A stretch of DNA of 64,000 nucleotides from an uncultured Tolumonas sp. (GTDB lineage Bacteria > Pseudomonadota > Gammaproteobacteria > Enterobacterales > Aeromonadaceae): contig NZ_OY781378.1 of NCBI RefSeq assembly GCF_963676665.1, positions 1,518,001-1,582,000 of the forward strand. The letters are read 5' to 3'. Under the pieces are notes generated by a model. That model was not told where the DNA came from and did no database searches. It was given only the letters and a program-made list of their open reading frames with translations. This document shows positions 2,424 to 45,356 of the stretch, in pieces (the first letter of the stretch is position 1; every line of letters starts with the position of its first letter). A program made the position numbers and the translations under genes.

Positions 2424-2431
2424 AGATGAAA

Positions 2432-2461: not shown

Positions 2462-2509
2462 CAATGAAGTTGTATTCCCGAACCACTCGAATGATTAAGG
2501 ATAAACATC

Positions 2510-10882: not shown

Positions 10883-12535
10883 ATGACTGTATCTTTCGTA
10901 AGACAATTAGGTTCAGAGTCTGGCATTCAGCTTAACCCACTGCGTGACAACTCAGAAATTCCAGCAGGTACCAACTCCGATCAGATCTTTGCTATTGCCA
11001 TGCGCGCAACACGCGGTCGCATTGATAAGGCATTTATCGTTAACCGAGGGAATGCAAAGCTGAAGCTGGGAAAAGGCGAAGCTATGCGTGTGACCGAGCT
11101 CAATGAAGCGTGGGTTCAGGTCCAGGAGGCACTAATCAAAGGTGCATACAGTGCGGTGGTGTCCAGACTTATTACTGATGCCGCAGCGTTGAAATACATC
11201 GTGGTTGCAGAAGAACTGAATGAAGTAACCGATCTGCCTACTGGTAACTACACATTCACCGTAACCGCAGAAATTCCAACTGCAACACCATATCTGATGT
11301 GTATTAAACATCTGGATTGCTTTAATGATGGTATCAAAATCGCCCTGCATGCGGATGAAAACCGCGTTGATGGCGCTAATGCCGCTAACACCATCCTGAC
11401 GTTGCGACTGCTGGATAAGGATGACGACAAGATTGCCGAGTACACCGGATCGCTGATCCAAGGCGATACGGATGATTCCGGTAATTCTCGTTACCTGCCA
11501 GACATCATTGAAGCGCGCACAGATGCGCTGGAAGTGATTATCGGAAGCACCCAATCAATTCCAGTTAATTCTGCAATGTATGGCTATACCAGCGCCATTG
11601 CTGACTGGGTTGAGTCTGACGTGTTGATTTACTTCACTGAAGGCGGGACTGCATACACCACCGACGACTATCAACGTGCTACGGCACAACTGGCGGAAAC
11701 TCAGTTTGATTACGCCTATATAGCGTCTGGCGGCTCAAAATCACCCGCATTGATCACCGTACTGTCAAACCTAATGCACGATACCAACCGACAGTTACGA
11801 TTTGATGTGCCGGGAGATTTAACTCCGGACGAAGCAATTACCTTTGTTGAACAGCTGAATTTGGGGGCAAGCCCTTCAGCGCATCTTGCGCACGCGTTCT
11901 GGGCGCCATTTAAATCAACGGATCCTACTGGCATTAATGCTAAAGGGCACTTTGGTACAGCATCACTGAATATCGCTAAAGCGTGCGCACGTAATGCACA
12001 AACCAATGCGAAAGGGTTTGCACCGAAAAACTACCCAGTAGCAGGCCGTGAATTCCCCGTCGATCGTACTGGTATCGTGCAAACCTACACGCCGAATAAC
12101 TACGAGTTAAACGCGCTGGCAAAAGCCAAAATAAACCCGGTCATTTATGAAAACTACACTGGCGGCGGCCGCTACGTCTTCCGTGACTCGTTAACCAGCG
12201 CGCAGGTTGAGTCAAGCATGAAGAAGTTGATCGCTGTCGCTGACATGTCAACGTCGATTGACGATGCAGTCACGCGTTATGGCAAGGATGTACTGCAGAT
12301 GCCAATGGAAGTATCTGTTAAGCGCATGCGGGATTTCTTGACCACGCTTTTTGAAGGCGCAACGGCATCGAAATGGCTGGTTGCATCCAGTGACCCTGAA
12401 ATGAACGGCTCTGCGTGGCGTTTCAGCGTCAAGCCAAATGAAGTGCGTCCATACGATCTCATGGATGTTGAATATTGGCTACGTTATGACGGCACCAACC
12501 GTCAGACTCATGTAACACAGACTTTAAGCCGCTAA
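10883..12535 (+). CDS. Tail sheath protein
   Basis: The protein has 550 residues. It follows a GGGAGATG ribosome site and lies just behind the capsid block. The sequence has the Ser/Thr/Ala-rich character of contractile sheath proteins, with typical C-terminal features: ALAKAKINPVIYENYTGGGRYVFRD followed by a helical DDAVTRYGKDVLQMPMEVSVKRMRDFL region and a beta-rich end. The length is near that of P1 gp22 sheath. A sheath implies a myovirus-type contractile tail, in agreement with the spike, PAAR and gpJ/gpI genes downstream. Recognised by overall resemblance and context. Confidence 0.75.
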   Translation: MTVSFVRQLGSESGIQLNPLRDNSEIPAGTNSDQIFAIAMRATRGRIDKAFIVNRGNAKLKLGKGEAMRVTELNEAWVQVQEALIKGAYSAVVSRLITDAAALKYIVVAEELNEVTDLPTGNYTFTVTAEIPTATPYLMCIKHLDCFNDGIKIALHADENRVDGANAANTILTLRLLDKDDDKIAEYTGSLIQGDTDDSGNSRYLPDIIEARTDALEVIIGSTQSIPVNSAMYGYTSAIADWVESDVLIYFTEGGTAYTTDDYQRATAQLAETQFDYAYIASGGSKSPALITVLSNLMHDTNRQLRFDVPGDLTPDEAITFVEQLNLGASPSAHLAHAFWAPFKSTDPTGINAKGHFGTASLNIAKACARNAQTNAKGFAPKNYPVAGREFPVDRTGIVQTYTPNNYELNALAKAKINPVIYENYTGGGRYVFRDSLTSAQVESSMKKLIAVADMSTSIDDAVTRYGKDVLQMPMEVSVKRMRDFLTTLFEGATASKWLVASSDPEMNGSAWRFSVKPNEVRPYDLMDVEYWLRYDGTNRQTHVTQTLSR

Positions 12536-23365: not shown

Positions 23366-23379
23366 TGGGGATAAATGTA

Positions 23380-26300
23380 ATGAAAATTTTGTTTGATGAC
23401 GCAACCAGCGCTAGCGCAAAAGGTATGTTGGCAAAGTTAAGGCTTGTCAGTTCATTGGCTCGGGTAAGAAAAGAATTGATATCGTTGCCGGGCGGCCCGG
23501 CATCAATGATGCTGCGACTCACTCTTGTAAAAAGAGCTAACCAGATCCGCATTGAACTTAGAGCGTCCGAGATAGCGGCGCAGGTTATGTCGCCACTGCA
23601 GATCAATGATACACCCAGCGAGCCCATTATTGGCGCAAGAGCCAATACGGCTAAACACTATCAATTCCATGAAACACGCACCAAGGGGCAGCGCAAGAAA
23701 GCCAATGATGCTGCCGTGTCCTTACTTAACCAGGTTAAATTAGGTCAGCTATCACGCAATCAGCTGTCTGAGGAAGATCTAGCTGTTCTGGCAGGGTATA
23801 GCGGGAATGGTGGTTCGTTGGTTGGGGCTGATGGAAAGAAAGGCTCTGCATACGAGTATTACACGCCAAAACCAATTGCCGAAGGTGTGTGGGTTGCCTT
23901 GGCGGAGATGGGATTTTCTGGCGGAAAAGTATTAGATCCTTGCTCTGGTACCGGTATTTTTAGCGCCACAGCACCAAAGAACTCAGTTATTGATGCTGTT
24001 GAACTGGACGAGACATCTGGCTCAATAAACTCATTGATCAATGATGGTGATTGTTACTCCACAACCATTTCACCATTCGAGGCGGTAGCGGCATCGACGC
24101 CGGATGAGGTGTTTGATGCGGTAGTGACTAACGTCCCGTTCGGCAGTGTAGCGGATCGTGGTGGGAATCAGCTACTCGATGGTAAGTACCAGAAGGAAAC
24201 ACTGGAAAGCTACTTCATTCTTCGCTCACTGGATAAGCTAAAGCCAGGTGGATTGGCAGCGTTTGTTGTCCCTCCTCGCTGCACCTCCGGTCGCGGTGCT
24301 GCAGAGGTAAAATTAAGACAGCGGGCCAGCCTTAAAGCTGATTTTATCGGAGCGTACAGACTGCCGAATTCCGTTTTTGGCGCGGCAGATGCAGATACCA
24401 TTACTGATGTTATTTTCTTCAGGAAATACTCTCATGATGCAGCTGAAAAAATAGCTGAATTGAAAGAGCAGTCACCGGAGACACTAAGTGATGCTTTAGT
24501 GTTATGGGATACATTTATTGATGGTCGCTACTTCAGCGAGGATGGAAAGCGCTTTGTTCTTGGTGAGTTTGTACCTAAAGATCCGGACAAATTTCGCGAT
24601 GTAGATCGGGTAAAAAACCCAGCCAGCATTCAAGATGTTGCCAAGTTGCTGCGTAAGCTGCCAGATAGTCGTGTTAACTGGGAATTACTTGATGCAAAAG
24701 AGACGGGCATCATTTTATATGGCGAAGGCGATACGATAACAAAGGACGGTCAGACACTGCAAATGCAGAGCGGAAGCTGGGTTGTTATGGCTAAGAATGA
24801 TAATGATCGCAGCGCCATGCAGTTGCTTGCCAAATGCAAGGATGCCTACACAGCTTTTTATTCTGACGTGCCGTATGAGGAAGCTAAGTCCCTTGTCGAT
24901 TATATGCGCGGCACATCTCAATCAATGGATATCCCAGCTTGGCTGTCATCGGCAATGGCTGAACTCAACAAGTTAAAGGCTAATGAGGATCGTCTAAAGG
25001 CATGGCGTGCCGGCATTGTTGGCTTGGCGATGATTCAGGTTCTTGATGAGAGTGGACGCTCCAGTGGGACCAACTTCTTGAGTGAGTATGGATCGCTGAG
25101 CGACGCGATAAAGAAAGTATCGCCATCAGCTAAGCGATTGCCTGGTGGGATTGGATCTGAATTCAAGCGCGGGCTGGGTGAAATGGCATCTCACTACGAC
25201 AGAAAGCGTGGATTTAGTGCGGTGTGGCGTGGTGACGTGCAGGCGAGCCCTACTGTCGATATATCAGTAACAGGGGGATTTGAAGGCTTAATTTACCAAG
25301 AAAAATCAAATTGGATTGCCACGCCCAAGGCCAAGGAGGTGCTTGGCGTCGAATTTGATCCAATCGGCTCAGATGAGTGGTGCATTTCCGCTGATGGCTC
25401 AATGGTCTCCCGCGCAGATGATTACTACGTTGGCAGCTACGGTGCCTATCTACTGACGATTGACAGTCAGATCGCTAGTGCAACCAACGGCCAGATCAAG
25501 CAAAAGCTGATGCGGCAGCGCATGGTTGCAAGTCAGCGAGTGGATAAAGTTGATGTGTCTAAAATTAGCTTCAACTTGTTCAGCCCATACGTCACCATCG
25601 AGCAGAAGGCTGAATTCCTACGCCGATTTGTTCACCCTGGTGCCGTCGTGGCCTTCGATGAAAAGACCAGCGATCCACAAATTGAATTTGATATTCCTGG
25701 TAGCAAGTTGACTGACAGAGAAAAGCTGATCAAGCGAGTCGGTGTTTACCTAAAAAATGGCGCTATCACTTTGGGCGGCGCAAAGCTATCTACCACCGAT
25801 GAAGCGGCAATAAAAGAGCTTCGAAATATTATCAACCAAGCGAACGAGCAATTTAATGGCTGGGCTCGTGGCAATAAGACTGTCACTGATCTTCTTGAGG
25901 CAAAAACGAGCGATCCGGCACGACTTCGCTTTACGCAGACAGAAGATGAGAGCCCGCTACCAATACCTGGCATGAATCCAGCGCTGACACTACATGGATA
26001 TCAAAACTCCTATGTTCGCCAGAAAGGGCGGGATTTCTCGGGCATCAACGGGTTCGATGTTGGTCTCGGTAAGACGTTCACGGCCCTTGCCTGTGTGCAA
26101 TACGTTCAATCTATCGGCGTTAAGAAAAAGACGCTATTTGTGGTGCCAAACTCCGTACTGTCAAATTGGCTAAATGAATGTAAAAAAGCATACCAATCAA
26201 TAGATGATTGCTTGTTTGTTGGGTTGCGCGAGGATGGCAATGGCGGTTACAGCGTAAGTTCATCAAACTACGATGAAGATCTTGCCCGCTCCATGGAGAA

Positions 26301-29300
26301 TAGACACGCTAAAATATTCGTCACCATGGAGGCATTTGAGCGTATCAGACTAAAGGGCGATACAATTTCATCCTATGAGTCATTTATGCGAAGTGTCGAT
26401 GCGTCATTTGCCGAAAGTGAAGATAAAAAGGCAGATGAACGCAAAAAAGGAAAGGCAAGGACCTTGCTGTCAGTTCTGGGGGATAAGACAGGATCAGCGC
26501 CATATCTGGAGGACATGGGGATTGATTCAATCGTGATCGATGAGGGCCATTGCTTTAAAAACTCAGCTGAGACGGTAGATTTTAGCGGCGGAAAATACCT
26601 GTCTCTTAGCCAGTCTTCACGACGTGGTGTCGATGCTCAGGCAAAATCATGGTATGTGCGTGGGAAGTCAGCGCTATCCGATGGCGTTCTGCTGCTGACT
26701 GCAACGCCAATAACGAATAGCCCGCTAGAAATTTACGCAATGATGTCTTTGGCTTCCGGACATGATCGCGTAAACGACATGTTTGCTGGTACATCCGGTT
26801 CAGACGGCTTCATGAATGCAATCTGCCAGATTGAGAATGAAGATGACGAAACCATTGATGGAGAATTACGCTCAATCAATGTGTTTAAAGGTCTGAATAA
26901 CGTTGAAATGCTCCGCAGCTCATTGCGCTCTGTAGCGACAATCAAGAGTGCAAAGGATGTCGGCGGGCAAATAAGAATCCCTGAGTCACCAGAGGTGTCA
27001 TCGCCGGTTGCGCTGCCGAGCGATACACGGCAACAACTGGAAGATTACAAGCAGGCATATCGCTTTGCCGCTGATACCGTAGCGGGAAGATCACAGATAC
27101 GGGGTGATGCGGAAGCCTACGAGCGGGTAATGACAAAATTTGGCGAACCCATGCAGCTGATAGCGCACCCATTTAACCTGATCAACAAAATGACAATGCT
27201 CATTGCGGATCCAGATCTTGATAATCGAGTGTCACGCTATCGCGTAAGTGACATGGGAAAATACAGCGAGTTAGTTTCCCTGTGGAATGAAAAAAAATAC
27301 AGCGAAGAGAGAACAAGGCCGGGGCCAAACTGCACTGAGTCTCAAGCCATCAGCAAAAGAACGCGGCACGATGCGTCTGGTGAAGTGATTGGTTATACCT
27401 ACAAAATGCCGGTAAAGGCTTGGATAGAAGGTGAGTTTATAACCATTGACTCAGTATCTCCGGACATTCAGGATAAATTTGAAGCGCTGGCAGAAAAGAC
27501 AGGCCTCGATTTAGATGTTGATGTACCACCGAAGCTGGCCGCAATGCTGGAAAACTTTCAGACAGAAGCGGCAACACCAAGGGGCGTTGATGACAAGGGA
27601 AATAAGATATCTTATGCCAAGCAGATCATATTCTGTGACCTGATTAGCTCTCATAACAAAATCAAGCGGCTGCTTGCTAAGCGAGCCGGCGTTCCATCGT
27701 CATCAATTGCCATTATTACTGGTCAGCGCAACAGTGCGCCGGATGAGATACAAGGGATTCAGGATGGATTTAATGCCTTTGGTGAAGACAATAAATACCG
27801 CGTGATCATTGCCAACGAAAAAGGTGAAGTTGGTCTTAACCTGCAAAAAGGGACGCAGGCAATACATCACCTTACCATTGGGTGGACCCCGGATAGCCTT
27901 ACCCAGCGAAATGGCCGCAGTGTCAGGCAGGGCAATAAGACGGGATCAGTTACCGTTTATCACTATGATGCCGACGGCACGTTTGACTCAGCAAAGCGAT
28001 CACTGGTTAACAGTAAGGCTGACTGGATCGGCTCACTAATGAGTAATGATGTGGGTAGCACGCTGGCTATCACCGGCGGGATGAGCCGCGAACAAATGGA
28101 GGCGCTTATTGACGCAATTGGTGACTCTGACGCCATTTCTAAGTTACAGGAGTCAATGGCAAACAAAGAAGCTTCGCGTCGAGCCGCCAGTAATCGTGAA
28201 CGTCAGCTTATCAACCTGAATACCATTGAGCGACAGAATGCATTTCTGTCTGAGAATGATTCATCGGTTGCATGGATAGCCTCAAAATTTGGCCCATTAA
28301 TGGCTGTTATGGGGCAGGTGCAGCAGCTAAGAAGTCGACTAGCAAATCCAAAGATATCAGAAACGGCAAGAGTTAGAAATGAGGCTGTGCTTTCTGAGCT
28401 TGAGGCAAAGCTTCGTGGTATTGAAAGTCAAATCAATGAGGCGGCCACGATAAAGTTAGCGAATGGAGATGCGATTGATCCGCAATCTGTCGTGCGGAGC
28501 TTTATTGAAAAGGCAAAGCGCGGCGAAAACAGAGCGACAGATCTAATCAAGTCGCTCCGTAGCAATCGTCTCGGGTGGAGCAATATCGTCATTGATGTCA
28601 ACGAGGGATCTGAGCTTGTCATTGAATGGCAGTCTGAAACTGGGATGGCCGAATCAATGCGTAAGCAGGCAGTGGATAATTACCAGAAACAATCGGTGGT
28701 TGGTGGCGCCATGCCAGAACCAATTGCTGCGGCATTTGCATCTGGAGATGGAGCCATGATCGGCGAGGTGGCCATCATGAAGGGGTGCTTCATTAACGGA
28801 AGGAATGATCTTTACGTTGTATCTGGCACATCAACAGCGAGATGCCTATCTGGTTTTGTAGAAAAAGAGGCCGTGCTGTCACGAATAGTCCCACTGCAGA
28901 GCGAGGTAGTGTATCCAGGTACGGCAGAGTATGAGGTGGCACTTACACAAGCCGCCGCTGCGGAGGACGCCTGCGAACGAAATGGTCAAGCCACGAAATG
29001 GTATAGCGAGGTTTGCCCTGATGTTGCTACGCGACGAGAAACGGAAGTAATGGTCTCATATCATGCACACAGCCATGAATTGCCATCCCCATATTTCCCT
29101 GTAGCCATCATTCCGTCATCCGTTTCCGATGATACCCCTGTTTTGTCCCGAATCCTGACTGAGCAGTCTTCAGCTATCGCTCGATGGGAGGGAAATAAGT
29201 TTGTTGTTTCTTCTCATCTTGATGTTGCACCCGGCAAGCAAGATCGCTATCAAGCCATCAAGGATTATACAGTTGCACATAAAATGAAGGCGACACTTGC

Positions 29301-29781
29301 TGATTTTGGCGGCCTGAAGTTTTATGCTGAGAAGCTGATACAGGCAGATATGCCATCAGGAGTGCTATTTAGTGCCGCACTAATCGGTAATTCGGCGGAT
29401 GAGATCAATAATTCTGTAGTCGATTTAATACAAAAGTCAGTTCCATGGTTTGATTTTGGTGGGGCCGAGGTTAGTTATATTGATTTCGGGAAGCGCCGAG
29501 AAATGAACCTGGCCATTGAGAAATCCACGCCAAAGACGGAAGAGCTGGATATTGAAACCGAGGTAATGGTAAGCAAATCAATAGAGAGCAATGCTATTGT
29601 TTATGTTGGCGGCGAAACATATCAGTGGAAGGATCGCATCAAGGATTATGGCAAAAAATATGGTGATTATGCCAAATGGGATGGCGACAACAAAGCCTGG
29701 AAAATTCAGCACCAGGCGTGGGTGCAATTAATTACAGACTTTCCAAAATTAGCTGAATCACTGCACCTGAAGGATGCATAA
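23380..29781 (+). CDS. DarB-type giant antirestriction protein: DNA methyltransferase plus SNF2-like helicase
   Basis: About 2,133 residues from ATG 23380, which has GGGGAT upstream; ATG 23365, overlapping the previous stop, is an alternative. An N6-adenine methyltransferase region has motif I LDPCSGTGIF near residue 185 and a catalytic-type NVPFG near 250. The helicase has GLGKT (Walker A, near 895), DEGH (motif II, near 1053), LLTATP (motif III, near 1106) and QRNGRSVRQG (motif VI, near 1507). P1 DarB has about the same size and the same domain pair. It is packaged into virions and protects injected DNA in cis from type I restriction. The same role is likely here. The C-terminal ~500 residues are not recognised. 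Confidence 0.88.
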   Translation: MKILFDDATSASAKGMLAKLRLVSSLARVRKELISLPGGPASMMLRLTLVKRANQIRIELRASEIAAQVMSPLQINDTPSEPIIGARANTAKHYQFHETRTKGQRKKANDAAVSLLNQVKLGQLSRNQLSEEDLAVLAGYSGNGGSLVGADGKKGSAYEYYTPKPIAEGVWVALAEMGFSGGKVLDPCSGTGIFSATAPKNSVIDAVELDETSGSINSLINDGDCYSTTISPFEAVAASTPDEVFDAVVTNVPFGSVADRGGNQLLDGKYQKETLESYFILRSLDKLKPGGLAAFVVPPRCTSGRGAAEVKLRQRASLKADFIGAYRLPNSVFGAADADTITDVIFFRKYSHDAAEKIAELKEQSPETLSDALVLWDTFIDGRYFSEDGKRFVLGEFVPKDPDKFRDVDRVKNPASIQDVAKLLRKLPDSRVNWELLDAKETGIILYGEGDTITKDGQTLQMQSGSWVVMAKNDNDRSAMQLLAKCKDAYTAFYSDVPYEEAKSLVDYMRGTSQSMDIPAWLSSAMAELNKLKANEDRLKAWRAGIVGLAMIQVLDESGRSSGTNFLSEYGSLSDAIKKVSPSAKRLPGGIGSEFKRGLGEMASHYDRKRGFSAVWRGDVQASPTVDISVTGGFEGLIYQEKSNWIATPKAKEVLGVEFDPIGSDEWCISADGSMVSRADDYYVGSYGAYLLTIDSQIASATNGQIKQKLMRQRMVASQRVDKVDVSKISFNLFSPYVTIEQKAEFLRRFVHPGAVVAFDEKTSDPQIEFDIPGSKLTDREKLIKRVGVYLKNGAITLGGAKLSTTDEAAIKELRNIINQANEQFNGWARGNKTVTDLLEAKTSDPARLRFTQTEDESPLPIPGMNPALTLHGYQNSYVRQKGRDFSGINGFDVGLGKTFTALACVQYVQSIGVKKKTLFVVPNSVLSNWLNECKKAYQSIDDCLFVGLREDGNGGYSVSSSNYDEDLARSMENRHAKIFVTMEAFERIRLKGDTISSYESFMRSVDASFAESEDKKADERKKGKARTLLSVLGDKTGSAPYLEDMGIDSIVIDEGHCFKNSAETVDFSGGKYLSLSQSSRRGVDAQAKSWYVRGKSALSDGVLLLTATPITNSPLEIYAMMSLASGHDRVNDMFAGTSGSDGFMNAICQIENEDDETIDGELRSINVFKGLNNVEMLRSSLRSVATIKSAKDVGGQIRIPESPEVSSPVALPSDTRQQLEDYKQAYRFAADTVAGRSQIRGDAEAYERVMTKFGEPMQLIAHPFNLINKMTMLIADPDLDNRVSRYRVSDMGKYSELVSLWNEKKYSEERTRPGPNCTESQAISKRTRHDASGEVIGYTYKMPVKAWIEGEFITIDSVSPDIQDKFEALAEKTGLDLDVDVPPKLAAMLENFQTEAATPRGVDDKGNKISYAKQIIFCDLISSHNKIKRLLAKRAGVPSSSIAIITGQRNSAPDEIQGIQDGFNAFGEDNKYRVIIANEKGEVGLNLQKGTQAIHHLTIGWTPDSLTQRNGRSVRQGNKTGSVTVYHYDADGTFDSAKRSLVNSKADWIGSLMSNDVGSTLAITGGMSREQMEALIDAIGDSDAISKLQESMANKEASRRAASNRERQLINLNTIERQNAFLSENDSSVAWIASKFGPLMAVMGQVQQLRSRLANPKISETARVRNEAVLSELEAKLRGIESQINEAATIKLANGDAIDPQSVVRSFIEKAKRGENRATDLIKSLRSNRLGWSNIVIDVNEGSELVIEWQSETGMAESMRKQAVDNYQKQSVVGGAMPEPIAAAFASGDGAMIGEVAIMKGCFINGRNDLYVVSGTSTARCLSGFVEKEAVLSRIVPLQSEVVYPGTAEYEVALTQAAAAEDACERNGQATKWYSEVCPDVATRRETEVMVSYHAHSHELPSPYFPVAIIPSSVSDDTPVLSRILTEQSSAIARWEGNKFVVSSHLDVAPGKQDRYQAIKDYTVAHKMKATLADFGGLKFYAEKLIQADMPSGVLFSAALIGNSADEINNSVVDLIQKSVPWFDFGGAEVSYIDFGKRREMNLAIEKSTPKTEELDIETEVMVSKSIESNAIVYVGGETYQWKDRIKDYGKKYGDYAKWDGDNKAWKIQHQAWVQLITDFPKLAESLHLKDA

Positions 29782-32677: not shown

Positions 32678-35600
32678 ATGGCATTGCAACATGACAGCCA
32701 AGGTTTTTTGGTTGGTGACCGCATTGAAGCAGACAAAATCACTGACCAAATCAATGAAATAATTAACGAATTAAAAGAGATAAAGGCGACCTTGCGCGGT
32801 GATGCTGTGCCGGGTTCTTCCTCCTCGGTAATATCGGCAGCGGAAAGTGTTAAAGCGCCGACAGCACCAGCGCTAACTTCAGTTGCATCACCGAAAGCGC
32901 GCGATGCAGGCGGGAGATTTACGGCTAATATTTATCAGCTGCCAAACACATCTGGCGTTGCAATGCCGGTAGCTAGAGGTCATCGCCAGCCAACCGTTAA
33001 ATCACCTACTCATGAAAAATCAGGCGATGACAACAAAAGAGATTCATCAGAGATAAAGGCGACCTTGCGCGGTGATGCTGTGCCGGGTTCTTCCTCCTCG
33101 GTAATATCGGCAGCGGAAAGTGTTAAAGCGCCGACAGCACCAGCGCTAACTTCAGTTGCATCACCGAAAGCGCGCGATGCAGGCGGGAGATTTACGGCTA
33201 ATAGTCAGGGTGGTCGTGTTAATGATGACAATAGGGATGCTGGTTCGGCATCTGCTATTTCTGACATGAGCGATCGTGTTGCTGGCGCTATTCGTGAAAT
33301 CGCTATCAGTGAAGAGTCAGATCCATCCGTAAAGGCATTTAATGAGGTTGCGCAACCGCTATCCCGCGGGTTTGGAAAGATATTCAGCAGTAATGGCAAT
33401 AAATCTCAAGATCGCTGGTTTCGCCGGATCTGGCGGGAGATGCTTGACAAGCGCCTACAAGAAGCCATTTCAAACAAGAAAGTACAGCGAACACTCGATG
33501 ACATAGAGAAGAATGGGCAGGATAAAGGAGAGTCAGGCTCGCGGTTTGGTGCCGCCATATTACTCCCACTTTTAGCCATACTTGGGAAAATATTAAGCGC
33601 ATTGCTGCCAGTTAAAGCGTTGAATGCGCTGAAACGACTTCTGCCGTCATCATTTAGGCCAACCGGCAGGACCACTACTGCAGGAACGAAAAGAGGAGAT
33701 CGTAGTGGCGGGAAGTCGACAGGCAAGAGTGGAAAATCAACCACTACAGCCGGAACTCGCCAGGAGCGCACCGGGAAAACAAATTCCAGAACAAGAACTG
33801 CTGGCGGTTCATCGCCAGAGGTCGCAAAAAAGCCGGGCATTTTTAGCAAAACCACAAAAGGTATAGGTAAGGGTCTTCGTGCTGGTCGTGGCGCAATCAG
33901 CAAGATCCCATTGCTTGGCGCTATTCTTGGCCTTGGGTTTATGGCTAGCGACGTCATGGACTCGGAGTCGAGTGATGGAACTCGCAAAGAGAAGGATATC
34001 GGTACTGGGGCGGCGGTCGGCCGTGGCGTTGGTGGTATGGGGGGCATAGCGGCTGGTGCAGCAGCTGGCGCCACCATAGGGTCGATTGTGCCGGTCATCG
34101 GCACTGCAGTAGGTGGCGTTGTTGGGGGATTGATTGGCGGTTGGCTTGGCGATTCTGCAGGCGACATCATTGGCGCTAAGTTCGGCGAATGGGTTAACGA
34201 TTTACGCAGCGCGAATATTACCCAATCTATTGTTGATAAATGGAATTTTACTGCTGATTTTGTAGGGAGTTTATGGGGTCAGGCGTCTGATGGCGTCAAG
34301 GCCCAATGGGCGACGATAAGCGAATCAGTAAGTCAGAAATGGACTGAGTTAACCAGTGTTGTCAGTGCGGCATGGGGCGATGTTGCAACTAAGGCAGGCG
34401 AGAAATGGGATGCAGCCGTCTCATTCATGCAGTCAAGCTGGACGTCTGTTGTCGATAAAGCCACCGGACTATGGGATGGGTTGACTGATTTCGCGTCAAA
34501 GGCCAATGATTACATTAAAGATAAAACCGGAATTGATGTCGCTGATGCCGCTGGCGAGCTGGTCGGCAAAGCCAAGGATGCTTACAACGGAGCTAAAGAG
34601 TCGGTATCCAAAACTATCGATTCAGCAAAAGATACCGCAACGCAGGCGCTTACTTCATTTAGTGATGCGCTTAGCCAAGCCGCAAAAAAAGTGGCAGATG
34701 CAACTGGCGTAACAACGGTTGTTGATGCAGTTAAGCGCAGCTACAGTCACGCCGAAAATAAAGCTGAATTGAAGCGCGCAATGGCTGAGGCGGGCATTAC
34801 CGATCCAAAAGAGCAGGCTTCATTTATGGGGCAGTTGGATCACGAGTCGGCTGGATTTACTCAACTCGAAGAAAGCATGAATTACAAGTCACCAGAACGG
34901 CTAATGGAGGTGAGTGCAACGGCGCGAAGCAAGGGTATCAATGCGGTAAATGAGGCTATTGCTGGCGGCCCAGAATCAGTTGCAGAATTGATGTATGGCG
35001 GACGCATGGGCAACACCGAGAAGGGCGATGCTTATAAGTATCGAGGGCGAGGGTTCATTCACCTAACCGGCAAGGATCAGTATGATTCAATCGGCAAATC
35101 CATGGGTATTGATCTTGTCAATAATCCAGAGTTAGCCGCTGATCCGCAAATTGCAGCCCGCATTGCTACGGAATATTGGAAAAAGACACCTGGATTACGA
35201 AAAGCAGCACAATCCGGCGATGTTGAAGCGGTCACCAAAAAGATAAATGGTGGTACGAATGGCCTCGATGATCGCATGGCTAAAACACAGCAATACCTTG
35301 ATGATGCCAACAGCGGTGAATTGACGGTTTCCTTATCCAAAGATGAGATTGAGGCTCGCAGACATCGAGATGCCGAGGTTGTCGTCAGTGCTAAAGAGGT
35401 TAAATCATCAAAAGATAAGGCTGCAGCCAAGAAGATGGCGGAAGAGGCGGCGGAGAAGTACCAAGTTCCAAATGTTCCGTTGATTTACCGTGATCAGGCT
35501 GGGGTTAAGCAGCCGGTATCATCGTTTGCTACCGACTTATCAACCAATACTACCGACTTATCAACCAGTATTGCGACAGCGCCAGTGTCGCCATCAATTA

Positions 35601-35824
35601 CCATTCCTAAAGCTGTGGCCAGCGCAGCAAGTCCTTCGCCAGTAATGGCGTCAACAGTAAAAGCTGCATCCATTCCGTCTGTTCCTGAAATGCCAACTGT
35701 CACCGTTCCAATGGGGGATGGAGTCAAGACAAAACAAGCCAATAACAATGCACCTGATGTATCGAGGGATGTATCAGATCGGCGAATTGCTCACGTTGTT
35801 ACTGGTGCGTATAGCGGATTTTAG
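32678..35824 (+). CDS. Tape-measure-like protein with GH19 lysozyme/chitinase-type domain
   Basis: 1,048 residues. An N-terminal region with a perfect 51-residue duplication is followed by a basic Ser/Thr linker (about 330-390) and a glycine-zipper hydrophobic stretch (about 440-500, AAGAAAGATIGSIVPVIGTAV). Next come alpha-helical repeats rich in Trp and Ala (SVSQKWTELTSVVSAAWGDVA), and a GH19-type glycoside hydrolase at about 693-875 with LDHESAGFTQLEE (probable catalytic E723) and YRGRGFIHLTGKDQY. A tail-length protein with a muralytic domain recalls P1 Sit. It would be released to open the cell wall during DNA entry. The GH19 assignment is firm; the tape-measure role comes from length, helices and position. 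Confidence 0.8.
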   Translation: MALQHDSQGFLVGDRIEADKITDQINEIINELKEIKATLRGDAVPGSSSSVISAAESVKAPTAPALTSVASPKARDAGGRFTANIYQLPNTSGVAMPVARGHRQPTVKSPTHEKSGDDNKRDSSEIKATLRGDAVPGSSSSVISAAESVKAPTAPALTSVASPKARDAGGRFTANSQGGRVNDDNRDAGSASAISDMSDRVAGAIREIAISEESDPSVKAFNEVAQPLSRGFGKIFSSNGNKSQDRWFRRIWREMLDKRLQEAISNKKVQRTLDDIEKNGQDKGESGSRFGAAILLPLLAILGKILSALLPVKALNALKRLLPSSFRPTGRTTTAGTKRGDRSGGKSTGKSGKSTTTAGTRQERTGKTNSRTRTAGGSSPEVAKKPGIFSKTTKGIGKGLRAGRGAISKIPLLGAILGLGFMASDVMDSESSDGTRKEKDIGTGAAVGRGVGGMGGIAAGAAAGATIGSIVPVIGTAVGGVVGGLIGGWLGDSAGDIIGAKFGEWVNDLRSANITQSIVDKWNFTADFVGSLWGQASDGVKAQWATISESVSQKWTELTSVVSAAWGDVATKAGEKWDAAVSFMQSSWTSVVDKATGLWDGLTDFASKANDYIKDKTGIDVADAAGELVGKAKDAYNGAKESVSKTIDSAKDTATQALTSFSDALSQAAKKVADATGVTTVVDAVKRSYSHAENKAELKRAMAEAGITDPKEQASFMGQLDHESAGFTQLEESMNYKSPERLMEVSATARSKGINAVNEAIAGGPESVAELMYGGRMGNTEKGDAYKYRGRGFIHLTGKDQYDSIGKSMGIDLVNNPELAADPQIAARIATEYWKKTPGLRKAAQSGDVEAVTKKINGGTNGLDDRMAKTQQYLDDANSGELTVSLSKDEIEARRHRDAEVVVSAKEVKSSKDKAAAKKMAEEAAEKYQVPNVPLIYRDQAGVKQPVSSFATDLSTNTTDLSTSIATAPVSPSITIPKAVASAASPSPVMASTVKAASIPSVPEMPTVTVPMGDGVKTKQANNNAPDVSRDVSDRRIAHVVTGAYSGF
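32776..33203 (+). repeat. Perfect 155-bp direct duplication in the tape-measure gene
   Basis: 32776-32930 and 33049-33203 are identical over 155 bp and 273 bp (91 codons) apart, so the frame is preserved. They encode the same 51 residues ending in KARDAGGRFTAN. No difference in 155 bp points to a very recent duplication or ongoing recombination. Confidence 0.95.
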
Positions 35825-39731: not shown

Positions 39732-40652
39732 ATGTCATTACCACATCAAAGTATTACGCCAATTCCAAACAATGAACCGGATGCCATCCCTTCTCTGTGG
39801 AATGTGCGATACGTTGAAATTGATGAAAACTTTTCAAACCATGAGTCGAGACTTTTCGCTCGCGAGCAGGAATTAGCTGCTGCACGAGGCGCATACCCTT
39901 CTCTTGGTGAACGAATGACAGACATCGCATCGGAGCTAGATCAGTTATCACCTGAGTTTCAGGACGAACTAGCTGCAACACTGATGTTCGCAATGACTCA
40001 GGGCAGTGTAGCGAATCAATCTGTTAAGGCGCTAAAAGAGCAAATTCAGCAGGAAGGCGAAATTACGCTAACCAATCGCGGGATCATCACTGGCTGCACG
40101 ATCACTAAATCGACAACGGCGGCGCGAAATCTAAATTTGGTCGGTGGCTCTGCATTTATGTCTGGTCGTCGTTATCTTGCTCCATCAAAAGATAATACTG
40201 CCAGCGTACCGCCAAATACCACTGCCGCTAACGTGACAGTAAAAGCATATCTGTATTTCAATGCAGCAAGCCAAGTCATGCGGCTGGCCGTGACAAATAT
40301 CGGTGATGAGCTGCCAGTTGATGCTATTCATTTGTATAACATCACTATTCCGCCTGCTTCCACTGATGCGACAGACCCATACCTGGATAACGTTACGCTA
40401 ACTAGCGTGCGTCGTGTTGAGTCGTCATTTCCTCGTTTATTGGATAACCCCGTGATCACAACTATTGGCATTAATACGCTGAGAGCGGCTGATTATCGAT
40501 TGGATTTTGATGTTGTTTCGTTTTCTGGTGGTCAATGTGACCCGGATAATATCGCCATTCAAAGTCGCGCTACCAATGGCTTCACGCTGGCGCTTGCCAG
40601 TGATGCAGACAATGTTGTTGTTCGCTGGAAAGCCAGCAAGCTGAATAACTAA
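39732..40652 (+). CDS. Tail-fibre protein
   Basis: 306 residues, starting 1 bp after the previous stop with GAGGT upstream. N-terminal region helical with an adhesin-like layout (LWNVRYVEIDENFSNHESRLFAREQELAAARGAYPSLGERMTD), then a beta-rich part (GIITGCTITKSTTAARNLNLVGGSAF) and a C-terminal globular domain. Structural tail fibre or spacer between the collar protein and the DGR-diversified tip is the likely role. Confidence 0.6.
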   Translation: MSLPHQSITPIPNNEPDAIPSLWNVRYVEIDENFSNHESRLFAREQELAAARGAYPSLGERMTDIASELDQLSPEFQDELAATLMFAMTQGSVANQSVKALKEQIQQEGEITLTNRGIITGCTITKSTTAARNLNLVGGSAFMSGRRYLAPSKDNTASVPPNTTAANVTVKAYLYFNAASQVMRLAVTNIGDELPVDAIHLYNITIPPASTDATDPYLDNVTLTSVRRVESSFPRLLDNPVITTIGINTLRAADYRLDFDVVSFSGGQCDPDNIAIQSRATNGFTLALASDADNVVVRWKASKLNN

Positions 40653-40664
40653 GGAGAATAGTTA

Positions 40665-41000
40665 ATGCCTCAAATTAATCTTATTCAGTCCGGCCAGCCG
40701 GTAGCTGATTTTTCTGTTTCTGGATCATTGATTACCGTGGCTGGCGTTACCGTCGATTGTGGCTCTCGTCAGTTAGATGTCGCATCGGTAATCGAAATCC
40801 GGTCTTTTGGTGGTGTGGCACAAGAAGGTGGTGATGAAGGGGCTTATCTCGCTCACATTCACATCCCGGCAAAAGTCTACTTGGAAACCGAAGTCCCCGC
40901 CGAGTCTAGTAATGACGAGACTGCCGTCACGATTCAGCGAACACCAGTTGCGATTGATCCTAACGCAGTGTCAGTAACGCTTTGGCCCGTAACTAACTAA
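40665..41000 (+). CDS. Small beta-rich tail-fibre-associated protein
   Basis: 111 residues with an AAGGAG ribosome site. Beta-rich (ADFSVSGSLITVAGVTVDCGSRQLD). It lies between a tail-fibre gene and the DGR target gene, so it may fold or attach the variable protein. No family recognised. Confidence 0.5.
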   Translation: MPQINLIQSGQPVADFSVSGSLITVAGVTVDCGSRQLDVASVIEIRSFGGVAQEGGDEGAYLAHIHIPAKVYLETEVPAESSNDETAVTIQRTPVAIDPNAVSVTLWPVTN

Positions 41001-41050: not shown

Positions 41051-42103
41051 ATGCCAACCATTTTTACTAAAGATCACCTGCGAGCATCGGTAGAAGCTGC
41101 AACAGGCGGTAAAATCACCGTGCTCTATACGGCTAAAGGCCAGCCTTCCTACATGTTCGTGAACCCACATTTTTATATTGAAGATGTTGACGCAACGCTG
41201 GGTGCTGGCAGTCATCCAATGTTTATTGTTGATGGCGTTGTGCGAACAGAGCGCTTTATTGGTGCATATCCTGGTGTGGTGAAAAACGGCGAGCTGTTGT
41301 CACTACCTGGAATGGATCCGTCAGCAAGTGCAAGTTTTGACACCTTCCTTGCTTACGCGCGTGCCTGCGGCGCCGGTTGGGGTCTGGCTACTCACATGGA
41401 TTACAACGGATTGGCCTTGTGGTGTAAGAAAAATGGCTTTATTCCTCGTGGCAACACTAACTATGGTCGCAGTTCTGATGCAACCTATGAGACTGGCGTG
41501 CGCGGTGATGGCGCCTTGCCGGGCGTTACTTCCGGTACGGCTCGAACACTGACTGGCTCTGGCCCTGCAGCGTGGCGCCATAACAACTCCCATGCCGGCA
41601 TCTCTGATTTAGTCGGCAATGTATGGGAATGGGCTCCGGGATTCCGATTGGTTGCTGGTGAGCTGCAGGTTATCGCGAATAACGATGCAGCTATGAGCAC
41701 CATTGATTTGACTGCGACCTCTGCATCATGGAAGGCGATTGATGGTGCGACAGGCTTGCTGGTTGCGCCGGGATCAGCAAATACAGTGAAGATTGCCGCG
41801 TCAGGTACTGCTAATTATACGTTAGTGTTGGCAAGTGGTGGCCAGTTGCAAGCGATGACCAACCCTGGTGCTGTCCCTGTTTCTGCTGCCGCACTCGTCA
41901 CCCTGAAACTGTATGGTGCCTACCCTGTGGCCACTGATCTTGGTGGTGACGGTTTCTGGTACAACGTGGCCGATGAGCGAGTAGCGATCCGCGGCGGCCG
42001 TTGGGACGACGGCGCCTTGGCCGGTCTGTTCGCGGTGAATGTGTACAACCTGCGTTCGCGCGCCGACACGGCCTTCGGGGCTCGTCCCGCTTTTTCAAAC
42101 TGA
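41051..42103 (+). CDS. DGR target: FGE/C-type-lectin-fold variable receptor-binding protein
   Basis: 350 residues with a GGAG ribosome site. The centre has the formylglycine-generating-enzyme/sulfatase-modifying signature (HAGISDLVGNVWEW, near residue 180-195), and the last ~40 residues are the C-type-lectin type DGR variable segment: VAIRGGRWDDGALAGLFAVNV, then GARPAFSN. Residues about 310-347 are encoded by the VR. The N-terminal ~100 residues are unrelated and probably attach it to the tail fibre. In Bordetella phage BPP-1 the corresponding protein (Mtd) is the receptor-binding tip, and the same is inferred here. A 42-bp stretch of the coding end differs from the TR only at its adenines. 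Followed by a hairpin and the avd gene. Confidence 0.9.
   Translation: MPTIFTKDHLRASVEAATGGKITVLYTAKGQPSYMFVNPHFYIEDVDATLGAGSHPMFIVDGVVRTERFIGAYPGVVKNGELLSLPGMDPSASASFDTFLAYARACGAGWGLATHMDYNGLALWCKKNGFIPRGNTNYGRSSDATYETGVRGDGALPGVTSGTARTLTGSGPAAWRHNNSHAGISDLVGNVWEWAPGFRLVAGELQVIANNDAAMSTIDLTATSASWKAIDGATGLLVAPGSANTVKIAASGTANYTLVLASGGQLQAMTNPGAVPVSAAALVTLKLYGAYPVATDLGGDGFWYNVADERVAIRGGRWDDGALAGLFAVNVYNLRSRADTAFGARPAFSN
41978..42091 (+). repeat. DGR variable repeat (VR)
   Basis: 114-bp copy of the TR (42754-42867). Hand alignment finds 13 differences: 12 fall on the 24 adenines of the TR, and one is T in TR to C in VR (41995), silent in a Gly codon. The last 17 bp (42075-42091) are identical in both copies and form the GC-rich initiation-of-mutagenic-homing end. 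Changed codons are mainly AAY in the template: Asn to Arg, Asp, Asp, Tyr, Arg, Asp and Ala, with Thr to Ala and Ile to Phe. Confidence 0.95.
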
Positions 42104-42126
42104 TCTTCGTACTTTGTTGTTTGTTG

Positions 42127-42146
42127 GGGTGGGCGAGAGCTCACCC
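42127..42146 (+). promoter_or_regulatory. Hairpin with GAGA tetraloop downstream of the VR (DGR target-recognition or terminator)
   Basis: GGGTGGGC (42127-42134) and GCTCACCC (42139-42146) pair as an 8-bp stem with one G-T mismatch and a GAGA loop. BPP-1-type DGRs have an 8-bp stem with a GRNA-type loop close behind the VR that is needed for efficient homing. Here it starts 35 bp after the VR. The following TTTCTTTT also allows it to act as a Rho-independent terminator, and the two roles are not exclusive. Confidence 0.65.
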
Positions 42147-42173
42147 TTTCTTTTGCGCCTTATGGGATAAGTG

Positions 42174-42656
42174 ATGAGAAGGACCAGAAACAACAATACG
42201 CATCAGCCTGTGTTTGATGCGAGTTTTCATGATCATGAAATTGAAAAGAGCTCTGATCATATGCCTGCACTCACAACGCCTCATGATGGTCACTTCCTTG
42301 AAATTGGGCAGAAGTGCGAAGAGATGATAAAGGACGCTTACATTATTCTTAAGCAGTTCCCTCGGGTGGAACGCCATGTTCTTGCTGCAGAAATACGGCA
42401 ATCAATGTGGTCTTTATTGCGATTGATCACGCGAGCGGGGCGCCGATTTCACAAAAAGACAACGCTCGAAGATATGGCTATAGAGATAGACATGCTTCGT
42501 AGTCAGGTTCGCGTGGCTAGGCAGCTTGGTTATATTGCAACAGACAAATACCGCAATTGGGCCATAAAGAATGATGAAATTGGTAGAAAGATTGGCGCAT
42601 GGTTGAGGCATGAGTCAGGTAATAAGCCATCCATTCACAAACAAGATGCACAATAA
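42174..42656 (+). CDS. avd: Avd-like DGR accessory protein
   Basis: 160 residues from ATG 42174. The first ~35 residues are a variable extension. The rest is the four-helix-bundle Avd pattern: ILKQFPRVERHVLAAEIRQSMWSLLRLITRAGRR, then IEIDMLRSQVRVARQLGYI and YRNWAIKNDEIGRKIGAWLRH. Avd forms a pentameric barrel that binds the reverse transcriptase and TR RNA and is required for mutagenic homing. The gene order target-avd-TR-RT is the same as in BPP-1. Confidence 0.9.
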   Translation: MRRTRNNNTHQPVFDASFHDHEIEKSSDHMPALTTPHDGHFLEIGQKCEEMIKDAYIILKQFPRVERHVLAAEIRQSMWSLLRLITRAGRRFHKKTTLEDMAIEIDMLRSQVRVARQLGYIATDKYRNWAIKNDEIGRKIGAWLRHESGNKPSIHKQDAQ

Positions 42657-43051
42657 GATCTAAAGTAAATACCATATATCAGGAAAATTACAATAATTAT
42701 CAATTAGTAAGCTGTTAGCCTTTCACTCGAAGATGGGTTGTGCGGCAAATAGACGAGTAGCGATCCGCGGTGGCAATTGGAACAACGGCGCCTTGGCCGG
42801 TCTGTTCGCGGTGAATGTGAACAACCTGCGTTCGAACACCAACACGAACATCGGGGCTCGTCCCGCTCTTGATTTGTATTCATAGGCCAGAAGCTGAAAG
42901 CTCAAGGGCTTTCTGACAGTGCTAAATCAAAAGGACGCACGATCCACGGCTCACGCCGGAAAACTAAATAGGTGGGTCATTCCAGTAGCAGCGAGCGTTG
43001 CGGAAGTTTGACCTGCCGCCCTATAAACCGTAATTAAAAGGCTGTTGGTTT
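42657..43051 (+). ncRNA. Non-coding region holding the DGR template RNA and its spacer
   Basis: 395 bp without a gene. It contains an AT-rich lead (42657-42740), the TR (42754-42867) and a 184-bp spacer up to the RT start (42868-43051). In BPP-1 the RNA spanning the end of avd, TR and the first part of the spacer is the substrate for cDNA priming with Avd and RT. A small hairpin (GAAAGC 42896-42901 with GCTTTC 42908-42913) lies early in the spacer. Transcript boundaries are not visible. Confidence 0.7.
42754..42867 (+). repeat. DGR template repeat (TR)
   Basis: Invariant template for the VR at 41978-42091, offset 776 bp. It holds 24 adenines in 114 bp, with AAY codons placed at the positions that vary (in the VR frame it reads RGGNWNNGALAGLFAVNVNN, then SNTNTNIGARPAL). 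Partial similarity extends upstream to about 42742. After 42867 the copies diverge almost immediately. Confidence 0.95.
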
Positions 43052-44110
43052 ATGGCAAAAACATTCAATAATATTTATCCAAAAATTTACGACTTTGACA
43101 ATTTAATGGATGCCTATGGCAAGGCCAGCAAAGGAAAGCGCTCAAGAAAAGAGGTGATGCGGTTTTCTTATAACCTTGAAGGCAATCTTATCGACATACA
43201 AAACCACCTAATGTGGGGCTCGTGGAAAACCGGAGAGTATCGACATTTCACTCTTTATGAACCAGTTTATCGTATAGGCGCTGCACTTCCATTCCGCGAT
43301 CGAGTTCTACACCATTCCCTTGTCGATACTATATATCCTTGTTTCGGCCCTCGCTTTATATCTGACACATACGCCTGCATACAGGGAAAAGGAACTCATC
43401 TTGGTGCAGATAAAGCGCAGGAAATGATGAGAAAGGTAAAGAGAGATCATGGTGAGGTGTATGTATTCAAGGGGGATATTTCTGGGTATTTTTACAATAT
43501 TAACCACATGATACTTAAGAAAATAATTCGGAAACGCATATCATGCCAAAGAACACTGGATCTGATTGATGAAATCATCGATTCATCAGCGGATCATGGC
43601 GATATTAACCCGAAGGGAATACCGCTTGGAAATTTGACATCCCAGTTGTTCGCAAACATATATCTTGGCGAGCTGGATTTATTTGTAAAACATCAGCTAA
43701 GAGAAGAGCACTATATTAGATATATGGACGACTTCTGCATTATCCATCACGACAAAAACCACTTGCAGCAGATCCGCGTGATTATTGAAGATTTTCTACT
43801 AAATAAACTGTGTCTTCTGACTAATAAAAAAACGCAGATATTCCCGGTCGCCATCAAGTATGGCAGGGCATTAGATTTCCTCGGTTATCGCATCTGGCCA
43901 ACGCATCGCAGATTGAGGAAAAGCTCAATTAGCCGTATTTGTCGCAGCCTTAAGCGACTGCAGAGATCTTACGCTCGCGGTGATGTTGGCATGGAAGAGA
44001 TCAGGTCAGTTGTTCATAGCTGGCTTGCTCATGCCAGCCACGCAGATACATTTGGGCTGCGAAATAAAATACTGTCGTCATTTTCATTCACCAAAAGCGA
44101 AGCGTTTTAG
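43052..44110 (+). CDS. DGR reverse transcriptase
   Basis: The enzyme has 352 residues, a usual DGR-RT size with no maturase or endonuclease domain. Catalytic motifs: GDISGYFYNI with D142 (motif A), the DGR-typical GIPLGNLTSQ at 189-198, and Y224-M-D-D227 (motif C). A C-terminal thumb-like segment (DFLGYRIWPTHRRLRKSSI) follows, typical of the retron/DGR/group II intron clade. It copies TR RNA into cDNA with errors at adenines, which replaces the VR. The Avd gene and TR lie directly upstream. The stop is followed by a GC-rich stretch (44121-44145) that may weakly terminate transcription. Confidence 0.95.
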   Translation: MAKTFNNIYPKIYDFDNLMDAYGKASKGKRSRKEVMRFSYNLEGNLIDIQNHLMWGSWKTGEYRHFTLYEPVYRIGAALPFRDRVLHHSLVDTIYPCFGPRFISDTYACIQGKGTHLGADKAQEMMRKVKRDHGEVYVFKGDISGYFYNINHMILKKIIRKRISCQRTLDLIDEIIDSSADHGDINPKGIPLGNLTSQLFANIYLGELDLFVKHQLREEHYIRYMDDFCIIHHDKNHLQQIRVIIEDFLLNKLCLLTNKKTQIFPVAIKYGRALDFLGYRIWPTHRRLRKSSISRICRSLKRLQRSYARGDVGMEEIRSVVHSWLAHASHADTFGLRNKILSSFSFTKSEAF

Positions 44111-44139: not shown

Positions 44140-44511
44140 CTACCCAGTCTTTTTGATAAGCTCTTTCAGGTTGAAATAAAATTTAGTCACCAGCTCAACA
44201 ATCTCAATATCTTCTTCCATCCACGGCCTGACAAACAGGTATCTATTTTTATCGATACTGATCCACATGGGATCTGCCAAAACTTCGTGCACGGAAATTT
44301 TCAATGCTCGGCATACGACGCTCGCCGCGGCAAACGTCATGAACTCAGTTCGCTCTATGTCTAGCCAGCTGTAAATTGTACTGACTGGTATCCCTGTTTT
44401 TGCAGAAAGTGCATCCACAGTCCATCCTCTGCTTTTTATTATTCCAGCCAACTTCAACTTGCAGTTAACGATGTAGTCCCTATCTATTTGCTGTATATAC
44501 GGTTTTTTCAT
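44140..44511 (-). CDS. XRE-type helix-turn-helix repressor
   Basis: 123 residues. An HTH_XRE domain spans about residues 20-75: LKLAGIIKSRGWTVDALSAKTGIPVSTIYSWLD, then RALKISVHEVLADP. The C-terminal part (VRPWMEEDIEIVELVTKFYFNLKELIKKTG) is short, without a LexA/CI peptidase signature, so it is probably not RecA-cleaved; inactivation by the antirepressor is an alternative. It is the only minus-strand gene at this end and diverges from the small gene at 44689, with a palindrome between them. It could be the lysogeny repressor or a DGR-region regulator. Confidence 0.8.
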   Translation of the reverse strand: MKKPYIQQIDRDYIVNCKLKLAGIIKSRGWTVDALSAKTGIPVSTIYSWLDIERTEFMTFAAASVVCRALKISVHEVLADPMWISIDKNRYLFVRPWMEEDIEIVELVTKFYFNLKELIKKTG

Positions 44512-45233: not shown

Positions 45234-45268
45234 GCTTTGAACGTTTCAAGCTAAGTGCTTGATATTAA

Positions 45269-45356
45269 TGGTGCCGATGGCCGGAGTCGAACCGGCACGC
45301 TGTAACCAGCGAGGGATTTTAAATCCCTTGTGTCTACCAATTTCACCACATCGGCA
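45269..45356 (-). tRNA. tRNA-Leu (anticodon TAA)
   Basis: 88 nt including encoded CCA. On the minus strand it folds with acceptor TGCCGAT/ATCGGCA, anticodon stem AGGGATTTAAAATCCCT containing TAA, a long variable arm (class II, CGCTGGTTACAGCG) and T-arm GCCGGTTCGACTCCGGC. The 3' end faces the prophage, so its 3' half is the likely integration site. Confidence 0.95.

What the first reader, a model, noticed from the sequence alone, without database searches (positions are those of the whole stretch)
41051..44110. Complete diversity-generating retroelement in a P1-like contractile-tailed prophage
Seen: target gene with VR, avd, non-coding TR and RT in one 3-kb cassette on one strand. The RT has D142, GIPLGNLTSQ and YMDD. 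Avd has the four-helix-bundle signature. The VR and TR differ nearly only at template adenines. Known: BPP-1 uses the same gene order to diversify its receptor-binding protein. Inferred: the cassette is active or was recently, and makes tail-tip variants. A DGR at the end of tail-fibre genes of a phage with DarB-type and P22-immI-type modules is an unusual combination.
Basis: partly seen in the sequence, partly recalled or inferred. Interest (0 to 1): 0.93.

Follow-up and report, generated by a model that had tools for sequence, protein, structure and literature searches.

The report
Self-mutating adhesin cassette in P1-like prophage
A 76-kb prophage whose tail-sheath and portal genes are P1-like carries a complete diversity-generating retroelement, a cassette predicted to copy an RNA template with errors and so rewrite about 13 residues of a likely tail-tip binding protein; relatives of that protein differ mostly in just this region, and the cassette was found in all nine of the closest P1-like prophages examined but in none of nine more distant ones, P1 included.

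Summary
Target gene with VR, avd, TR and reverse transcriptase lie on one strand in 3.06 kb; 12 of 14 TR/VR mismatches are at TR adenines. The RT falls with DGR RTs (99/99), Avd passes NCBI's curated Avd model, and the target is a TaqVP-type C-type-lectin protein. Additions: a GRNA-loop hairpin after VR; a covarying spacer RNA between TR and RT that resembles Rfam's RT-14; and a 60-bp att repeat in tRNA-Leu bounding a 75,964-bp prophage in a Tolumonas-like host. Natural diversification is visible in homologues: in 24 of 24 near-identical target pairs VR differs far more than the rest. 'P1-like' is right for sheath and portal. The cassette is regular in one P1-like clade (nine of nine records that I examined; some were found through the RT) and absent from nine of nine chosen records outside it. 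The same cell holds a second complete DGR in a prophage with P2-type tail genes. New member of a known kind; activity of this copy and its effect on host range are inferred.

The parts
41051..42103 (+). DGR target gene: 350-aa TaqVP-type C-type-lectin variable protein, predicted tail adhesin
41978..42094 (+). Variable repeat (VR), codons 310-348 of the target
42076..42094 (+). IMH-like 3' end of VR: 19 bp, one difference from TR (42092)
   Evidence: function inferred from BPP-1
42127..42146 (+). Hairpin after VR: 8-bp stem with one G-T pair, loop GAGA (GRNA type)
   Evidence: GRNA consensus from passages of PMC3240598
42171..42656 (+). avd, accessory variability determinant (start uncertain)
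   Evidence: NF033474 97.7 bits, cut-off 80; phrog_3206 3e-35
42754..42870 (+). Template repeat (TR), 24 adenines; 9 AAC/AAT codons
42866..43018 (+). Structured spacer RNA, including the last bases of TR; Rfam RT-14 matches 42874-43018 over its whole length, below threshold
43052..44110 (+). DGR reverse transcriptase, 352 aa
39347..39730 (+). Tail-collar fibre N-terminal type protein, 127 aa
   Evidence: Pfam Phage_tail_fib 4.7e-8; phrog_1780
39732..40652 (+). 306-aa protein of the fibre module; distant homologue stands before the second DGR of the genome
   Evidence: 27% over 252 columns, E 3e-17
40665..41000 (+). 111-aa protein of the fibre module
   Evidence: phrog_8734 8.8e-11; (29%, E 1e-7)
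10883..12535 (+). P1-like tail sheath
   Evidence: phrog_1036 2.5e-134; 59.5% to Xanthomonas phage Rb1, about 25% over part of its length to P1 and P7
30243..31790 (+). P1-like portal
   Evidence: phrog_1497 5.2e-155; 64.8% to Rb1, 27.3% to D6, 25.8% to P1 and P7
21083..29781 (+). DarA_N-domain protein (21083-23365) and DarB-like methylase/helicase (23365-29781)
44140..44511 (-). HTH repressor-like gene behind the RT
   Evidence: phrog_18342 1.5e-19; Pfam HTH_26
45266..45325 (.). Right att site: 60-bp exact repeat of the 3' part of tRNA-Leu; left copy 30.7 kb upstream of the window (G000:C11:1487302-1487361), beside a Phage_integrase gene

Best explanation
This is a complete diversity-generating retroelement that likely diversifies the predicted receptor-binding tip of an integrated P1-like prophage by error-prone copying of an RNA template. 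(1) avd-TR-spacer-RT is likely transcribed as one RNA (inferred). (2) The spacer folds into a conserved structure (supported by covariation) that likely recruits RT-Avd and primes cDNA synthesis at the 3' end of TR, as described for BPP-1 (inferred). (3) The RT likely misreads template adenines; the TR/VR mismatch pattern, its footprint, is shown. (4) The cDNA likely replaces VR, guided by the IMH-like end and the hairpin after VR (elements shown, use inferred). (5) The rewritten codons lie in the ligand face of a TaqVP-type C-type-lectin fold (fold predicted; exposure taken from TaqVP). TR offers nine NNC/NNT codons and four codons free at their first base: about 9.8e12 proteins, none with a stop. 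(6) The product likely sits on the tail fibre and changes which surface the phage binds (inferred from neighbours and BPP-1).
For: Parts complete and in BPP-1 order. 12 of 14 mismatches at TR adenines. RT and Avd families. Target fold. Hairpin after 13 of 19 VRs, 1 of 19 TRs, 4 of 748 background windows. Spacer covariation and recovery of the spacer in 12 of 16 loci not used for the model. VR-focused variation in 24 of 24 near-identical homologue pairs and 12 of 13 VR changes of P0001 at TR-adenine codons.
Against: No measurement on this prophage: no reads, no second isolate. Two mismatches are not at adenines, and 12 of 24 TR adenines are unchanged in VR. RT-14 scores below its threshold here and the single-sequence fold of the spacer is not better than shuffles (z -0.87). 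The hairpin scan had to allow one G-T pair. Tail location rests on neighbours only. The fold of residues 135-189 of the target is mostly low confidence.
Confidence: 0.92

Rival explanations
1. The cassette is a DGR but is now silent in this lysogen: VR was last rewritten before integration, and the prophage or its DGR no longer works.
For: One copy only; no reads or second isolate; the right end of VR carries a C>T difference that homing has not removed.
Against: RT, Avd and target are open with intact motifs; all mapped DGR parts are present; that C/T difference recurs in 9 of 11 loci of the lineage, as expected of an IMH/IMH* boundary rather than decay; homologues diversify in nature.
Confidence: 0.25
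2. The target is not the phage's receptor-binding protein but a protein shown or released by the lysogen, so the DGR would diversify something other than host attachment.
For: TaqVP-type targets are single-domain proteins without a tail-anchoring domain of their own (PMC6328139 Results part 1); FGE-like folds also occur in enzymes.
Against: It lies directly behind tail-collar and fibre-module genes in both DGRs of this genome; phrog_5302 and phrog_11262, which it also matches, are called tail proteins; homologues in P2-like ACA1 and VHML lie behind tail genes and one is annotated antireceptor.
Confidence: 0.08
3. The RT belongs to a group II intron or retron and the repeats are incidental.
For: NCBIfam's best model for it is group II RT/maturase, 106.5 bits.
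Against: That is far below the model's cut-off of 300; tree and PDB comparison place it with DGR RTs; avd, TR, VR and hairpin are present.
Confidence: 0.01

Closest known systems
Bordetella phage BPP-1 tropism-switching DGR (mtd-avd-TR-brt)
   Same: Gene order target-VR, avd, TR, RT on one strand; RT 36% identical; att in a tRNA gene; GRNA hairpin class described there; C-type-lectin target fold.
Thermus aquaticus prophage DGR target TaqVP (PDB 5vf4)
   Same: Closest solved structure of the target, about 40% identical, whole-length alignment; VR at the C-terminus.
   Different: 13 codons can change their residue here against nine variable residues reported for TaqVP (PMC6328139).
DGRs of Vibrio phages VHML and VP585, Aeromonas phage phiARM81mr, Pseudoalteromonas phage ACA1
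   Same: RT 42-50% identical, same cassette order, target of the same type; the spacer model finds VHML, phiARM81mr and ACA1 (VP585 was not searched).
   Different: Other tail types: VHML and ACA1 have P2-type tail genes; targets only 34-36% identical.
Phage P1 and P1-like phage-plasmids
   Same: Sheath and portal homology, DarA/DarB-like genes here.
   Different: No DGR RT in 9 of 9 such records searched outside this clade. P1 varies its fibre by Cin DNA inversion (recalled); no PF00239 recombinase was found in this genome. This prophage is integrated in tRNA-Leu.
Large surveys of DGRs (Roux et al. 2021, PMC8144416)
   Same: Viral DGRs with C-terminal VR in attachment proteins and at least 75% of mismatches at TR adenines are the usual pattern (abstract, Results parts 1 and 2).
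   Different: I saw no P1-like assignment in the parts read; whether this locus's relatives are in its data set was not checked.

Membership tests
Diversity-generating retroelement | RT of the DGR clade | tested here: met
   99/99 branch parts 22 DGR RTs from 10 group II and 4 retron RTs; 8ub7 best solved relative
Diversity-generating retroelement | TR/VR pair with mismatches at TR adenines | tested here: met
   12 of 14, p = 2.6e-8
Diversity-generating retroelement | VR in the 3' end of an open gene with a C-type-lectin fold | tested here: met
Diversity-generating retroelement | Accessory protein (Avd) | tested here: met
   NF033474 above its cut-off
Diversity-generating retroelement | IMH-type end and hairpin after VR | tested here: met
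Diversity-generating retroelement | RT-dependent rewriting of VR | not testable with these tools
   needs culture; natural variation of homologues fits
Rfam RT-14 (RF02921) | Score at or above the family's gathering threshold | tested here: not met
   38.9 against 48.1 in the window; met only in L036, 54.7
Rfam RT-14 (RF02921) | Whole-length match with the family's structure, at the same place in relatives | tested here: inconclusive
   whole-length matches at the spacer in window, L032, L036, L022 and VHML; none in L027, L031, L033, L034, L035, Bise; BPP-1 matches Phage_DGR
P1-like phages | Homologous sheath and portal | tested here: met
P1-like phages | Lysogeny as a plasmid (P1's own habit, recalled) | tested here: not met
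   integrated at tRNA-Leu with 60-bp att repeats and a Phage_integrase gene; hence 'P1-like structural genes', not 'a P1 phage'
P1-like phages | Cin-type serine invertase for the tail fibre (recalled) | tested here: not met
   no PF00239 match in this genome, control genomes positive; other recombinases not excluded

The most novel reading that the evidence does not exclude
One clade of P1-like phages has given up P1's DNA-inversion switch and diversifies its adhesin with DGRs instead, swapping whole DGR cassettes at a fixed place behind the fibre genes; some members keep two avd-RT cassettes in tandem (Ideonella prophage, UViG G080), one with a template whose target is not nearby. The Rfam RNA 'RT-14' is the priming RNA of this and many other phage DGRs, the counterpart of BPP-1's Phage_DGR RNA.
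Probability: 0.5. Interest if true: 0.62.

Novelty: new member of a known kind. Interest (0 to 1): 0.5.

Why it matters
P1 is a textbook case of tail-fibre switching by DNA inversion (recalled). A sister clade that carries error-prone reverse transcription instead lets two diversification strategies be compared on one virion type. The spacer alignment and model give a likely priming structure outside BPP-1, so the priming model can be tested in another lineage. One cell with two complete DGRs and homologous targets makes cross-talk between templates testable.

Tried and rejected
Group II intron or retron RT: rejected. The first two RT trees were faulty: my script read outgroup loci whose match is on the minus strand in the wrong strand, so several rows were short, missing or antisense (L051 with a branch of 8-10), and the DGR branch had 20% and 71% support. 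One search repeats the tree with both strands read: 10 of the 12 group II loci (L052 and L054, with stops inside, left out) and 4 of the 10 retron loci (those over the model's cut-off).

Perfect-stem hairpin scan missed the window; one G-T pair was then allowed, with background and TR controls. A TR/VR pattern in viral contigs gave 0 matches. Single-sequence folding of the spacer was not significant. Cross-homing between the two DGRs of the cell is not claimed: TR1 and VR2 share 64 of 99 aligned positions and their 3' ends differ. A sheath search in 295 genomes of the order matched only this genome: too sparse for a survey. No VR for the second template of the Ideonella locus was found within that 9-kb locus; a remote one is not excluded. 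PF00239 absence does not exclude inversion by other recombinases; Rb1 has a large serine recombinase annotated behind its fibre genes. Second RT match of G083 (1661-2536, 35%) not examined. The nine outside records were my choice: 5 of 193 plasmid records with a sheath match and 4 of 24 phage records with a portal match.

Papers: ten searches. 'diversity-generating retroelement' + 'P1-like' + 'prophage' gave 0 papers; with 'phage P1' + 'tail fiber' one paper, seen only in the listing. That is the whole basis for saying that I saw no report of DGRs in P1-like phages in this library. Seen: PMC8144416 abstract and Results parts 1-2 of 3; PMC6328139 abstract and Results part 1 of 2; PMC3240598 and PMC12875486 passages; all others listings only. 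I took the RT-14 source paper and a BPP-1 RT structure paper from recalled DOIs; neither is held, so whether RT-14 has already been tied to DGRs in print is unknown to me.
Full report
Observation. Target 41051-42103, avd 42171-42656, TR 42754-42870 and RT 43052-44110 are on the + strand. VR (41978-42094) and TR are 117-bp repeats with 14 mismatches, 12 at TR adenines, p = 2.6e-8. The RT has D142, GIPLGNLTSQ and YMDD. The order is that of BPP-1.

A hairpin at 42127-42146, 8-bp stem with one G-T pair and loop GAGA, follows VR; PMC3240598 describes 7-10 bp GC-rich stems with GRNA loops at this place (passages). By one criterion (at least 7 bp, at most one G-T pair, GRNA loop, within 120 nt) it follows 13 of 19 VRs, among them all 11 of the window's lineage, 1 of 19 TRs, and occurs in 4 of 748 background windows; a stricter first scan had missed the window. 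The 19-bp 3' ends of VR and TR differ at one base, 42092. A C in TR against T in VR at this place (one base later in L033) recurs in 9 of the 11 loci of the lineage and is absent in L034 and L035.

Spacer RNA. Between TR and RT, Rfam's RT-14 matches over its whole length at 42874-43018, 38.9 bits against a threshold of 48.1. Among relatives it passes in L036 (54.7), just misses in L022 (48.0) and scores 44.7 in L032 and 37.6 in VHML. L027, L031, L033, L034, L035 and Bise gave no RT-14 match at E up to 5; BPP-1 matches Phage_DGR instead; L044 and L046 were tested at the threshold only, without a match. An alignment of 11 spacers supports a structure of 31 pairs in six helices: 92.0% of cells paired, 16 of 31 pairs with two-sided changes, score 0.386 against 0.155 in shuffles and at most 0.091 for slid versions. 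The structure was predicted from that same alignment, and some of the 11 are close relatives. The model built from it found 13 places in 12 of 16 sources not used to build it; all 13 lie between avd and RT, 12 directly behind an identified TR or TR-like sequence (in L072 I did not look for the TR); it missed BPP-1, Bise, L023 and L024 (E-values are rough). PMC12875486 states that in BPP-1 the spacer folds, recruits bRT-Avd and primes cDNA from an internal adenine (passages); that role is inferred here.

Natural diversity. Over 19 DGR loci, 215 of 239 TR/VR mismatches are at TR adenines; the weakest are L022 (14 of 25) and the partial repeat of L044 (5 of 7); some loci are close relatives. The closest homologue, P0001, differs at 17 residues: 13 in residues 310-350, 12 of these at codons with a TR adenine, and 4 in the other 309; its own TR was not seen. 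Among 105 aligned rows (the window and 104 of the 120 listed homologues, chosen by length) 24 pairs differ by at most 5% outside VR; in 24 of 24 VR differs far more (8-17 of 41 against 0-15 of 307-323), the extreme being 12 of 41 against 0 of 323. The pairs share members and are not independent.

Prophage. A 60-bp exact repeat of the 3' part of tRNA-Leu lies at window 45266-45325 and 30.7 kb upstream of the window, beside a Phage_integrase gene: 75,964 bp. The first named hit for the host's UvrC that carries a genus is Tolumonas lignilytica, 88%. Sheath and portal are 59.5% and 64.8% identical to Xanthomonas phage Rb1; to P1 and P7 they are about 25-26% over 59-75% of their length, and the portal is 27.3% to D6.

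The DGR marks one clade of P1-like phages. Six of 11 virus or genome records tested have this sheath, 63-72% identical, and all six have a DGR RT: five long ones (40-71%) and G075. Of the five long ones two were found through the RT and three through a tail protein. All 6 contigs found through that tail protein have an RT. An Ideonella plasmid with a 64.9% sheath has two RTs. With the window's prophage and the Oceanimonas one that makes nine records. Nine of 9 chosen P1-like records outside the clade, P1, D6 and Rb1 among them, have no RT match at E up to 1e-3. Rb1, with the nearest sheath of these, shows that the boundary is narrow. No PF00239 recombinase was found in this genome or in 6 virus records; Oceanimonas has one, about 220 kb from its DGR.

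Cassette turnover. Two DGR types occur behind the fibre genes of this clade: the window type and the L042 type (RT 39-42% to the window in L042, L045, L046; target about 25%; VR-TR distance 1438-1474). UViG G080 and the Ideonella prophage carry the window type followed by a second avd-RT of the L042 type (73-75% identity among the G080 second RT, Ideonella RT2 and L042). In G080 the second RT is short at its N-terminus; in Ideonella the second cassette has its own TR-like sequence and spacer but no VR within the 9-kb locus. I read this as gain and loss of cassettes at one place; the order of events is inferred.

Second DGR in the same cell. At C11:523-526 kb lies a complete DGR with 14 of 14 mismatches at TR adenines, target 54% and RT 36% identical to the window's, Avd below NCBI's cut-off (63.6 against 80), in a prophage with P2-type tail genes. 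The two genes before its target are distant homologues of those in the window, so fibre module and DGR may travel together (inferred).

Verdict. A confirmed, complete DGR; ordinary in mechanism, notable for its phage clade, its spacer RNA and the second DGR in the same cell.

Noticed in passing
L017:6877-9727, minus strand (G000:C11:522876-525726): Second complete DGR of the same genome, in a prophage with P2-type tail genes; 14 of 14 TR/VR mismatches at TR adenines; its RT groups with that of Pseudomonas phage Bise.
   Followed up: yes
L077:1571-6787 and L036:4264-8180: Tandem DGR cassettes: a window-type avd-TR-RT followed by a second avd-RT of another DGR lineage; in Ideonella with its own TR-like sequence and spacer but no VR nearby, in UViG G080 with a short RT.
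   Followed up: partly
P0002 (510-aa metagenome protein): Looks like a mosaic target: its middle part resembles the target of the second DGR, its C-terminal part that of the window (by eye).
   Followed up: no
L073:4998-6092 (Klebsiella phage KPN N98): A homologue of the target (43%) with no RT or Avd annotated within 5 kb: possibly an adhesin of this type kept without its DGR.
   Followed up: no
L020:1404-3212, minus strand (G000:C11:1501403-1503211): Open frame of 602 aa made of near-identical repeats of about 20 residues (...NLTVNGSFDISGCTGITSIPD...), inside the prophage.
   Followed up: no
window 32678-35824: 1048-aa tape-measure-like protein with an endolysin-type domain at residues 697-922 and a repeated stretch near its N-terminus.
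   Followed up: no
window 1744-3391: Arc-like repressor next to a P22-type antirepressor gene: an immI-like switch.
   Followed up: partly
G083:1661-2536: A second RT match (35%) at the other end of a P1-like virus contig that already carries a window-type DGR RT.
   Followed up: no
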